A DNA stretch of 64,000 bases from the NCBI RefSeq assembly GCF_010728725.1, contig NZ_AP022606.1:3286001-3350000 (forward strand), written 5' to 3'. The position numbers and the translations under genes are program-made. Below, one piece after another: positions 12,821 through 50,153 of this stretch; the stretch's first letter is position 1, and each line of letters starts with the position of its first letter. A model generated the notes under the pieces. The model saw nothing but the letters and a program-made list of their open reading frames with translations, was not told the origin of the DNA and searched no databases. The DNA is from Mycobacterium branderi (GTDB lineage Bacteria > Actinomycetota > Actinomycetes > Mycobacteriales > Mycobacteriaceae).

Positions 12821-15800
12821 ATGGAGGTTTCTGGCCGATACTTTCCGCTGACGCGGGGTCAGCTCGACATATGGCTTGCGGCTGAAACCGGGCATTGCGG
12901 TGCGAAGTGGCAGCTGGGCGTACTTGCGCGGATCGAGGGCACGATCGAGCCTCGTGTGCTGGAGCGTGCGGTCCGCGAAGTGGTGCGCGAGGCCGAACCG
13001 CTGAGAGCCGCCTTCTTCGAAGTGGACGGGCAGGTTTTCCAGCGGGCGGTTGATTACCCCGAGGTTGAGCTTGCCCGCTATGACCTCACTGGTTCGCAAG
13101 ATCCGGCTCGAGACGCCTATCGGCTGGCGGCGTCGATTCAGCGCACGGTAATGCCGCTGAGCGGCCCGCTGTTCAAATTCGCGTTATTCCAGACAGCGGC
13201 CGACGAATTCTATTTGTTCGTGTGCTGCCATCACATCGTCATTGACGGAATCGGCGTCGCCCTGGTTTCTCATCGGATCGCCGCAGTGTATTCTGCGCTG
13301 GCTTCCGGTGCGCCGGTTCCGCCGGCTTTCTTCGGCTCTCTGCAAGATCTGGTGGAATGCGAGTCGCAATACGAGGACTCCAGCGATTATCTCGACGACC
13401 AGGCCTATTGGGCGAGCAATCTTCCGGCGGAAAACCCATCACGCAACCGGTTGGCACCCGCGCCGTCCGGCGATCCGGCCGATTCTTCTGTGCCGGTTCA
13501 ATTGGATCCCGTCGTCGTTGCCGAGCTGCGCCGGTTATCGCAGGCGTTGGGAGTGCGACGGGCGTCGGTAATTACCGCGGCCTGCGCACTTTTGGTTCAC
13601 GGTGGTGACGTCGAGTGCTCGGAGGCGGTGCTCGACTTCCCGGTCAGCCGCCGGGTGCGCCCGGAAACGGCGACGGTGCCCGGCATGTTGTCCGGGACGG
13701 TGCCGTTGGTGTTGACGACGTCGCCGCAGACTTCGGTTGCGGAGTTTTGCCGGCATGTCGATACGCGAATGCGAGAAGCGCTGCAGCATCAGCGGTTCCC
13801 CGTGCATATTCTGGAGAAAAAGGCGCGCCTTGGCGCTTCCGGGGAGGCATCCGGCCGGGTCATTGTTAATTTCATTCCGGCGACCAGGTTAGCGGACTTT
13901 GATGGTGCTCCCGGATCGGGTGCCGTCACCCATTCTGGTTTCGAGGATCAGCTCGAACTATGGTTTATTCGGGGCGGTGAGGAGCTTTTTCTCGACACCG
14001 CCGGTCCCCGGCAATTGTTCTGCAATTGTGAAACCCGCGATCTAGTCGAGCGCTTGCAGCGCGTGTTGGTGGCGATGACCGCTGACCCCGGCCGGTTGTT
14101 GTCGTCGGTCGATGTCGTCGATACCGGCGAGCGCGCCCGTCTCGGTGAGTGGGGCAACCGGGCGGTGTTGACTCAGCCCGCGACGGCGTCCGCGTCGGTC
14201 CCGGTGTTGTTCGCCGAGCAGGTGGCCCGCACCCCAGATGCGGTGGCGCTGATGTGCGACGGACGGTCGCTGACGTACCGGGAACTGCAGGAGGCCGCAA
14301 ACCGGTTGGCGCACCTGCTGGTCCGACACGGTGCGGGGCCGGGACGGTGTGTGGCGCTGCTGTTTTCGCGGTCAACCGAAGCGATCGTGGCGATCCTGGC
14401 GGTTTTGAAGTCCGGCGCCGCGTATCTGCCGATCGACCCGGTGGTGCCGGCGGCGCGCATCGCGTTCATGCTCGCCGATGCCGCGCCCGTCGCCGCGGTC
14501 ACCACCGCGGACCTGCGCTCCCGACTCGACGGGTGCGACGTGGCGGTCATCGATGTCGACAACGCCGCTATTGACAGGGAACCCAGCACACCACTACCTG
14601 CGCCGTCCCCCGAGGACATCGCCCACATCATCTACACGTCGGGCACAACCGGCACCCCCAAAGGCGTGGCGGTCACCCACCACAACATCACCCGACTGTT
14701 CGACTCACCCGATGCCGTCTTGCAACCCGAGCCGGGACAGGTGTGGACGCAGTGTCATTCGTATGCCTTCGACTACTCGGTGTGGGAGATCTGGGGTGCC
14801 CTGCTGCACGGCGGCCGGCTGCTGGTGGTTCCGGAGCCGGTGACTCGCTCCCCGCGAGATTTCCACGAGCTGCTGGTCAGCCAACGGGTCGGCGTGTTGA
14901 GCCAAACCCCTTCGGCGCTAGGTGTTTTGACGCCCGAGGGGTTGGATTCGACGACGTTGGTGGTCGCCGCGGAGGCGTGCCCGGCCGAGATGGTGGACCG
15001 GTGGGCGCCGGGGCGGGTGATGGTCAACGCCTACGGGCCGACCGAGACCACGGTTTATGCGTCGATGAGTGCGCCGTTGAGGCCGGGGTCGGGGTCGCCG
15101 CCGATCGGGTCGCCGGTGCGGGGGGCGGCGTTGTTCGTGCTCGATTCCTGGCTGCGCCCGGTGCCGACGGGTGCGGTGGGCGAGTTGTATGTGGCCGGCA
15201 CCGGTGTGGGAGTGGGGTATGTGCGCCGAGCACCGTTGACCGGGTCGCGGTTTGTGGCGTGCCCGTTCGGGGCTTCCGGGCAGCGGATGTATCGCACCGG
15301 GGATCTGGTGCGCTGGCGGGTTGATGGGCAGCTGGACTATCTGGGGCGCGCCGACGAGCAGGTCAAGATCCGCGGGTATCGCATCGAACTCGGCGAAATC
15401 CAGTCGGCCCTAAGCGCTTTGGACGGGGTGCAGCAGGCTGTGGTGATCGCCCGCGAGGACCGCCGCGGCGACAAACGCCTGGTGGGCTACGTCACCGGCG
15501 CCGTCGACACCGCGCAGGTCCGCGAGGAGCTGGCAAAGCGGCTGCCCGACTACATGGTGCCCGCTGCGGTGGTGGCCCTCGACTCATTGCCGCTCACGCC
15601 CAACGGCAAGCTCGACACGCGCGCCCTGCCGGCGCCCGAATACACCGGTGGCGGATCCCGGACCCCTGCCAACGTCGTCGAGGAGATCTTGGCCGGCATC
15701 TACGCCCAAGTGCTCGGACTGGAACGCGTCGCGGTCGACGACTCCTTCTTCGATTTGGGCGGGGATTCGCTGTCGGCGATGCGGGTGATCGCCGCCATCA

Positions 15801-50153: not shown

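What the first reader, a model, noticed from the sequence alone, without database searches (positions are those of the whole stretch)
12821..50153. Ten-module lipopeptide synthetase with self-consistent stereochemistry
Ten A and ten T domains, a starter C domain, three active-looking epimerases (modules 3, 7, 9), and DCL-type C domains exactly in modules 4, 8 and 10 predict an N-acyl decapeptide with D-residues at 3, 7 and 9, released by a thioesterase. This is much larger than the mycobacterial glycopeptidolipid synthetases known to me (three-four residues, reductive or other release). I know of no described mycobacterial product with this pattern.
Basis: partly seen in the sequence, partly recalled or inferred. 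Interest (0 to 1): 0.85.

Follow-up and report, generated by a model that had tools for sequence, protein, structure and literature searches.

The report
Ten-module lipopeptide synthetase with built-in aminotransferase
A mycobacterium carries a giant assembly-line enzyme that should build a fatty-acid-capped chain of ten amino acids, and the line ends, after its release domain, in a fused aminotransferase that was seen on such enzymes in only a few related mycobacteria.

Summary
At 12821-50153 lie ten A domains (A3 split between two ORFs), ten T domains, a starter-type C, E domains in modules 3, 7 and 9, and DCL-type C domains exactly in modules 4, 8 and 10. M. celatum carries modules 1-5 and part of 6, A3 included, in one frame; a further species has the same ten-module E3/E7/E9 layout.

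After the thioesterase the same frame runs into a complete class I aminotransferase (48990-50150), a diverged copy of the stand-alone Rv0858c-type enzyme, which the genome keeps. The fusion was found in 5 of 396 genomes of the genus, as one clade (100/100) under purifying selection with intact catalytic residues. A distinctive A domain (module 2 here) matches it in copy number in the same five genomes; its signature was not found in the other 391.

Best reading: a lipo-decapeptide synthetase carrying its own transaminase, most likely for one unusual residue; that last step is inferred. Large mycobacterial lipopeptides are known (GL8P, PMC11978893), so this is a new variant of a known kind.

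The parts
12764..21619 (+). ORF1 of the synthetase: modules 1 and 2 and the first part of module 3 (C3 and about 60% of A3); likely start ATG 12821
21354..50153 (+). ORF2 of the synthetase: rest of A3 through module 10, thioesterase and aminotransferase, 9599 aa open frame
12812..14140 (+). C1, starter-type condensation domain (lipo-initiation)
   Evidence: Pfam PF00668; PDB matches to CDA starter C; motif
14141..15880 (+). A1-T1, pocket code DYWSVAAVYK
15893..19036 (+). module 2 C(LCL)-A-T; A2 code DVFNLGAYTK, with the NAYGPSETWY signature that tracks the aminotransferase fusion
19049..22172 (+). module 3 C(LCL)-A-T; the reading frame breaks inside A3 (code DVWTVAAMCK, read from the ORF1 piece); not mended here
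22176..23585 (+). E3 epimerisation domain
23577..26633 (+). module 4 C(DCL)-A-T, code DFWSVAAVYK
26643..29792 (+). module 5 C(LCL)-A-T, code DVWTVAAMCK
29802..32951 (+). module 6 C(LCL)-A-T, code DVW?VAAMCK (one position not read)
32964..36107 (+). module 7 C(LCL)-A-T, code DVWTVAAMCK; 94.5% identical in DNA to module 3 over 3137 bases
36111..37523 (+). E7 epimerisation domain
37515..40559 (+). module 8 C(DCL)-A-T, code DVW?VAGVYK (one position not read)
40569..43694 (+). module 9 C(LCL by tree, no motif match)-A-T, code DAETVVAVCK
43695..45107 (+). E9 epimerisation domain
45099..48161 (+). module 10 C(DCL)-A-T, code DFWTVGVMWK
48162..48989 (+). type I thioesterase domain (PF00975); Ser-Asp-His residues conserved in 8 of 8 aligned copies (7 independent loci)
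48990..50150 (+). aminotransferase domain fused in frame after the TE (PF00155; NCBIfam NF005855 over its cut-off; best PDB match 2o0r, Rv0858c)
50157..50912 (-). SAM methyltransferase, convergent with the synthetase; found also in M. celatum and M. kyorinense, no match at E<=1e-30 in the fetched stretches of the two other A-type loci
50909..52192 (-). cytochrome P450 beside the synthetase (with only the methyltransferase between, where that is present) in 5 of 5 A-type loci, the four others 84-91% identical; candidate tailoring enzyme
2..730 (+). C-terminal part of a fatty acyl-AMP ligase (FAAL; whole gene G000:C1:3284985-3286730), candidate acyl supply; found upstream of the synthetase in M. 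celatum and M. kyorinense

Best explanation
It is a ten-module non-ribosomal lipopeptide synthetase (architecture about 0.93 sure). C1 condenses an acyl chain onto residue 1; the chain may come from the neighbouring polyketide synthase and FAAL. The line then adds ten residues with D configuration at 3, 7 and 9, and the thioesterase releases the peptide by hydrolysis or cyclisation (which of the two is open). The aminotransferase fused behind the thioesterase is a PLP enzyme with its catalytic residues in place, derived from the stand-alone Rv0858c-type (possibly glutamine-transaminase-K-like) enzyme. Its most likely job (about 0.45) is to make, by transamination of a 2-oxo acid, the amino acid that one distinctive A domain of the same synthetase selects (module 2 here, module 8 in the paralogous synthetase). 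Shown by computation: domain order and types, the fusion, its grouping as one clade, its conservation, and its copy-number match with that A domain. Inferred: acyl donor, substrate, direction and timing of the transamination, and the product itself.
For: Domain anatomy and C/E typing. The same ten-module E3/E7/E9 layout in G084, there in four ORF pieces; uninterrupted modules 1-5 and C-A of module 6 in M. celatum, with pocket codes equal to the window's at A1-A4. TE and aminotransferase in one frame: and 8 of 8 aligned copies, which are 7 independent loci after dropping the G084 assembly-end duplicate. Rarity: a match spanning both domains in 5 of 396 genomes of the genus (list sorted by E-value and cut, 3 candidates scored per genome); 22 of 25 named relatives of the TE end within 57 aa of it. 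The 8 fused rows form one clade (100/100) against 25 stand-alone copies. dN/dS of the aminotransferase is about 0.11-0.22 between fused loci, near the stand-alone enzyme (0.085-0.16), and its protein sequence is better conserved than the TE. Pairing with one A domain: the NAYGPSETWY site occurs 7 times, in the five fusion genomes only, with copy number equal to the independent fusions (2, 2, 1, 1, 1); 0 of the other 391 have an exact match. In 4 of these 7 (G000 twice, G084, G095 contig 21) it lies in the same synthetase locus as the fusion; in the other 3 on another contig of a draft genome. These A domains form one clade (11 rows from the 7 sites, support 0.99) although they sit in module 2 in one synthetase type and module 8 in the other.
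Against: The A-domain/aminotransferase pairing comes from one group of related species, and the two synthetase types are paralogues, so common descent alone could explain it. The pocket code DV[FW]NLGAYTK matches no substrate known to me (recalled tables only). A precursor enzyme need not be fused to the line. The genome keeps the stand-alone relative (77% identical), which might do the same reaction. No product is known. In this assembly the synthetase is interrupted inside A3.
Confidence: 0.5

Rival explanations
1. The fused aminotransferase tailors the peptide itself: it transaminates a side-chain or terminal amine (or a keto or aldehyde group made by the adjacent P450) on the chain near the TE or on the released peptide.
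For: The position after the TE, at the end of the line, puts it near the finished chain; a P450 is kept beside the synthetase in 5 of 5 A-type loci.
Against: The family seems to act on free amino acids: the domain passes NF005855 (a general aminotransferase model), the nearest model with a named substrate is methionine aminotransferase, below its cut-off, and PMC12910592 (passages seen) places Rv0858c with glutamine/methionine transaminases. The one code here that might mean a basic residue (A9, starting DAE; recalled rule) is not kept in module 9 of G084 (DFWTLGAVYK).
Confidence: 0.25
2. The fusion is a passive passenger: a duplicated housekeeping aminotransferase was captured at the end of the synthetase gene and merely adds a second copy of the ordinary activity.
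For: 76-77% identity to the genome's own stand-alone enzyme; a single fusion event needs no selection for a coupled function.
Against: Kept in frame and intact in all 7 independent loci seen, in both synthetase types, with purifying selection and 12 alignment columns where all 8 fused rows differ from all 25 stand-alone copies.
Confidence: 0.2
3. In the source strain the synthetase is dead: the break inside A3 is a true frameshift.
For: Two overlapping ORFs in the assembly; M. celatum has modules 1-5 and part of 6, A3 included, in one frame of 6571 aa, so the break is not shared. One of the four other large synthetases of the same assembly is open from end to end.
Against: The A3 pieces cover the whole domain without visible loss. 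Three of the four other large synthetases of the assembly are also broken, while the 2139-aa PKS and other genes beside them are open, and modules 3 and 7 are 94.5% identical; this fits assembly error in repeats. The rest of the 9599-aa frame is open.
Confidence: 0.2
4. It is simply a longer relative of the GPL/GL8P surface-lipid synthetases, whose product is glycosylated by enzymes encoded further upstream. This does not exclude the best explanation.
For: Starter C and TE are related to those of many mycobacterial synthetases; two genes with glycosyltransferase families lie about 83 and 134 kb upstream (G000:C1:3214012 and 3164506), among further synthetases.
Against: No glycosyltransferase family among the 20 window proteins scanned; the ORFs beside the G084 copy were only listed, not searched. 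Ten modules and a TE-aminotransferase end are not GPL or GL8P features (PMC11978893 passages; PMC3537567 abstract start in a listing).
Confidence: 0.3

Closest known systems
GL8P synthetase of Mycobacterium abscessus (MAB_4690c/MAB_4691c; PMC11978893: abstract, section 8 part 1 of 2, section 12 and passages seen)
   Same: Mycobacterial N-acyl oligopeptide made by large NRPS with several E domains and a thioesterase; 8 residues against 10 here
   Different: Two genes (bimodular plus hexamodular), eight modules, predicted D residues at 1, 3, 6 and 8, glycosyltransferases and MmpL/MmpS around it, and the word aminotransferase not found in the main text. Here: ten modules, E at 3, 7 and 9, and a TE-aminotransferase end
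Classical glycopeptidolipid (GPL) synthetases Mps1/Mps2 (gene names recalled)
   Same: N-acylated peptide from mycobacterial NRPS
   Different: [quoted passage not shown] the window has ten modules and a TE
L5P/PstA of M. avium subsp. paratuberculosis (PMC8103206, abstract start seen in a search listing; PMC11978893 discussion)
   Same: Mycobacterial lipopeptide with a D residue
   Different: Pentapeptide with D-Phe at position 1; the window predicts a decapeptide with D at 3, 7 and 9
Rv0858c-type aminotransferase (PDB 2o0r; NCBIfam NF005855)
   Same: Fused domain 73-79% identical to the 25 mycobacterial stand-alone copies compared and over the model's cut-off
   Different: Covalently attached to an NRPS after the TE; forms its own clade with 12 columns that separate it from all 25 stand-alone copies compared
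PLP domains embedded in NRPS/PKS (survey PMC3870968: abstract, sections 7 and 8 and passages seen)
   Same: Fold-type-I PLP enzyme inside an assembly line; PF00155 is one of its four families, and three Aminotran_3 (PF00202) entries of its Table 2 have an alpha/beta-hydrolase domain directly before the PLP domain, an analogous order
   Different: All 7 PF00155 entries of its non-redundant Table 2 are assigned to the 8-amino-7-oxononanoate synthase type and none follows a hydrolase or TE; reference identity 24-42%. The survey followed up domains next to a carrier protein, so a TE-PF00155 layout could have escaped it

Membership tests
Linear NRPS lipopeptide synthetase | N-terminal starter-type C domain | tested here: met
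   PDB starter C matches, clade of ORF-initial C domains, motif
Linear NRPS lipopeptide synthetase | Complete C-A-T modules with core motifs, colinear E and DCL C domains | tested here: met
   A3 is split between two ORFs
Linear NRPS lipopeptide synthetase | An N-acyl peptide product | not testable with these tools
   needs chemistry
Glycopeptidolipid (Mps) synthetase | Tripeptide-amino alcohol core | tested here: not met
   ten modules and a terminal thioesterase
GL8P-type second locus | Eight modules in a bimodular plus a hexamodular protein with predicted D at 1, 3, 6 and 8 | tested here: not met
   ten modules, E at 3, 7 and 9 against PMC11978893
GL8P-type second locus | Glycosyltransferases beside the NRPS | tested here: not met
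   none among 20 window proteins scanned; the nearest scanned glycosyltransferase-type gene is about 83 kb upstream
Rv0858c-type (NF005855) aminotransferase | Score over the curated model cut-off | tested here: met
   608.6 bits, cut-off 553
Rv0858c-type (NF005855) aminotransferase | PLP lysine, NPTG motif and C-terminal substrate arginine (roles recalled) | tested here: met
   conserved in 8 of 8 fused rows, 7 independent
Actinobacterial succinyldiaminopimelate transaminase (TIGR03539) | Score over the curated model cut-off | tested here: not met
   150.6 bits, cut-off 355.65
AOS-type PLP domain of NRPS/PKS | 8-amino-7-oxononanoate synthase-like PF00155 domain in an assembly line | tested here: not met
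   best PDB and NCBIfam matches are transaminases and the domain follows a TE

The most novel reading that the evidence does not exclude
A new terminal architecture for NRPS: a transaminase captured from primary metabolism after the thioesterase and coupled to one dedicated A domain elsewhere in the same synthetase, so that a megasynthase carries its own maker of one building block. It arose once in the M. celatum/kyorinense/MFM001 group and was kept through a duplication after which the matching A domain sits in module 2 of one type and module 8 of the other.
Probability: 0.4. Interest if true: 0.7.

Novelty: new variant of a known kind. Interest (0 to 1): 0.5.

Why it matters
Mycobacterial lipopeptides are surface antigens and host-interaction factors (GL8P and L5P are examples), and this locus predicts an uncharacterised family of ten-residue members in species near M. 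celatum and M. kyorinense. The TE-aminotransferase end with a PF00155 transaminase is a layout not listed in the part of the survey of embedded PLP domains that was read here. Its copy-number match with one A domain gives a direct, cheap test of whether a synthetase can carry the enzyme for its own unusual monomer.

Tried and rejected
DapC (succinyldiaminopimelate aminotransferase) function for the fused domain was considered because the solved relative 2o0r bears that name. It was rejected: TIGR03539 scores 150.6 against a cut-off of 355.65, and PMC12910592 (table entry and footnote seen) says no experiment supports that name for Rv0858c and that Rv1178 appears to play that role.

A side-chain role of the aminotransferase on a basic residue at position 9 (A9 code DAETVVAVCK) was considered and dropped, because G084's module 9 has another code while the fusion is kept.

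An internal start that would free the aminotransferase as a separate protein was considered. No purine-rich ribosome-site-like stretch was seen before the GTG codons near 48969 (by eye), and the fusion is in frame in all 8 aligned rows. This does not exclude it.

A 14015-aa frame with the aminotransferase in G308 looked like another fusion but is a run of N after a stand-alone gene. The second G084 copy looked like a paralogue but repeats the contig start over 20 kb at 99.5%. It was dropped from the count of independent loci; it was left in the alignment, the tree (one of the 8 fused rows) and the C-domain set.

Modules 6 and 8 have one unread position each. The resemblance of DVWTVAAMCK to the Phe pocket of GrsA is recalled only.

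Literature: ten searches of the open PMC library were run; searches returned nothing. In these searches I found no description of a TE-aminotransferase (PF00155) NRPS end nor of a mycobacterial lipo-decapeptide. Most hits were seen only as listings, and subscription journals are not covered. Against novelty: the survey PMC3870968 lists three Aminotran_3 domains directly after an alpha/beta-hydrolase domain, an analogous order.

The protein-database searches were limited by length windows and by the number of candidates scored. One search (about 5.3-16.8 thousand aa) found none, not even the window's own protein. One search (about 1.1-3.5 thousand aa, 7999 candidates scored) found 10, of which 2 are real fusions (Mycobacterium sp. 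MFM001 and this genome's own paralogue) and 8 are weak 27-30% matches in PEP-carboxylase fusions. One search (about 1.9-6.0 thousand aa, 2453 scored) found the same 2. In one search only 3 candidates per genome were scored and the list of matches was cut, so a weak or further copy could be missed. The A-domain pattern allowed no mismatch.
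Full report
What is there. The window is G000:C1:3286001-3350000 of a 5.98 Mb mycobacterial genome. Its nearest relative by the synthetase end is G403 (94% over TE and aminotransferase), whose contig length equals that of M. celatum NZ_LQOM01000025.1. Two ORFs, 12764-21619 and 21354-50153, encode the synthetase. The order is C-A-T, C-A-T, C-A | A-T-E, C-A-T, C-A-T, C-A-T, C-A-T-E, C-A-T, C-A-T-E, C-A-T-TE-aminotransferase. The bar marks the break inside A3.

Typing. The domain models were built from the window, so they find it by construction; the independent evidence is the following. 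Pfam finds a condensation domain at the N-terminus, and a thioesterase and PF00155 at the C-terminus. PDB matches separate C1 (7c1k and the CDA starter C), C4 (PvdL, bacitracin synthetase 3, McyB, SrfA-C, TycB), E3 (E-containing entries) and C2 (a different set) (the C types of these entries are recalled). TIGR01720 is passed by E3. In 105 C domains from this genome and related loci, position predicts type: 25 of 29 after an E carry the DCL motif and none the LCL motif, 52 of 55 after a T carry LCL and none DCL. The tree agrees, with strong support for the post-E clade (0.998) and the ORF-initial clade (1.0) and weak support for the post-T clade (0.57).

The break. M. celatum holds modules 1 to 5 and C-A of module 6, A3 included, in one open frame of 6571 aa that runs to the contig end, with pocket codes identical to the window's at A1-A4. 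G084 holds modules 1 to 7 (A7 in part) in one frame. Intact A3 copies thus exist. Three of the four other large synthetases of the same assembly are broken too and one is open, while the 2139-aa PKS and other long genes nearby are open, so assembly error in repeats is likely but not shown.

The fused aminotransferase. Residues after the TE match PF00155 (E 1.5e-61), PDB 2o0r (Rv0858c, E 1.1e-189) and NCBIfam NF005855 over its cut-off. The stand-alone relative is kept at C1:2342346-2343464 (77% identity), and a second fused copy lies at C1:3964041-3965951, at the end of a paralogous synthetase. Of 396 genomes of the genus, 383 have some match (nearly all listed ones to the stand-alone enzyme) and 5 have a match spanning TE and aminotransferase: G000 (2), G095 (2), G084 (2 rows, one an assembly-end duplicate), G342 and G403. 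Of 25 named loci with a related TE, 3 carry the aminotransferase (M. celatum, M. kyorinense, Mycobacterium sp. MFM001) and 22 end within 57 aa of the TE. The 8 fused rows form one clade at 100/100 against 25 stand-alone copies. dN/dS in pairs of fused copies is 0.11-0.22, against 0.085-0.16 for stand-alone pairs and 0.20-0.77 for the TE (ratios computed from its printed dN and dS; the near-identical G084 pair and the fused-to-stand-alone pair are left out). TE Ser-Asp-His and aminotransferase Lys, NPTG and Arg are present in 8 of 8 rows (residue roles recalled).

Two synthetase types. A-type (this window and G084, complete; M. celatum, M. kyorinense and G095 in part) has E at 3, 7 and 9 where complete. 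B-type (G000:C1:3963972-4001553, and G095 contig 21 in part) has ten modules in G000 with E at 2, 4 and 6 and the same TE-aminotransferase end. A-type codes at positions 2, 3, 5 and 7 are shared by G000 and G084 and the others differ or were not fully read, so a family of related peptides is expected.

Link to one A domain. The site NAYGPSETWY, with code DV[FW]NLGAYTK, occurs 7 times in 396 genomes, in exactly the five fusion genomes and with copy number equal to the independent fusions. A sister site with Thr in place of Ser occurs 12 times in 8 other genomes with different codes. The Ser-type A domains form one clade (11 rows from 7 sites, support 0.99). They occupy module 2 in A-type and module 8 in B-type. 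In 4 of 7 cases site and fusion lie in the same locus; in 3 they lie on different contigs of draft genomes. This is the main ground for thinking that the aminotransferase makes the amino acid for that A domain. Common descent within one species group is the obvious confounder.

Surroundings. A P450 (50909-52192, minus) lies beside the A-type synthetase in 5 of 5 loci, with only the methyltransferase (50157-50912) between them in the 3 of 5 where that gene was found. Upstream, FAAL, acyl-CoA ligase, acyl-CoA dehydrogenases and CoA-transferase genes are found in M. celatum and M. kyorinense; htpG and an end of the PKS in M. celatum. The FAAL and a KS-AT-DH-ER-KR-ACP polyketide synthase could supply the acyl starter, but G084 showed no match to the FAAL part within the first 80 kb of its contig, so that link is weak. 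MbtH-like genes lie at C1:3250434 and 3181898, beside other synthetases.

Known work. GL8P (PMC11978893) shows that mycobacteria make lipo-octapeptides from large TE-ended synthetases, and that paper says that composition and size of second loci vary across species; in its main text xenopi occurs once, and celatum, branderi and heckeshornense do not occur. The survey of embedded PLP domains (PMC3870968) lists no PF00155 domain after a TE in its Table 2, but three Aminotran_3 domains after an alpha/beta-hydrolase, and it followed up only domains next to a carrier protein. PMC12910592 suggests that Rv0858c approximates glutamine transaminase K. The verdict is a new variant of a known kind, with the terminal fusion as the interesting part.

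Noticed in passing
G000:C1:3182131-3273485 (L028-L032), upstream of the window: Three more starter-C synthetases lie downstream of and among genes of which two were shown to match glycosyltransferase families. The first two end in C-T with no A domain between. The third is a six-module 7603-aa protein whose tail looks by eye like a reductase domain (no family search made).
   Followed up: partly
G000:C1:3963972-4001553 (L035-L037): Paralogous ten-module synthetase with E at 2, 4 and 6 and the same TE-aminotransferase end, split into four ORF pieces in this assembly; a different P450 lies beside it.
   Followed up: yes
window 19043-22181 and 32958-36116: Modules 3 and 7 are 94.5% identical over 3137 bases, pointing to recent module duplication or gene conversion; the reading-frame break lies in module 3.
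   Followed up: partly
L086 and L089-L090 (G084:C1 ends): The last 20 kb of the 4.78 Mb contig repeats the first 20 kb at 99.5% with 64 gap openings: an untrimmed, error-rich circular overlap that makes a false second synthetase.
   Followed up: yes
window 50157-50912: The methyltransferase has a paralogue at G000:C1:1780286-1780983 (78% in DNA), in a region not studied.
   Followed up: no
window 53781-61667: KshA-like and ring-hydroxylating Rieske oxygenases, an acyl/AMP ligase, an aldehyde dehydrogenase and a CrtC-like lipocalin protein form a catabolic-looking block also found downstream in M. celatum, M. kyorinense and MFM001.
   Followed up: partly
window 8585-11260: An 891-aa frame holds two CoA-transferase family III stretches in one protein, 91-95% identical in M. 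celatum and M. kyorinense.
   Followed up: no
L096-L098 (G308:C97): An apparent 14015-aa open frame starting in a stand-alone aminotransferase gene is a run of N, not a protein.
   Followed up: yes
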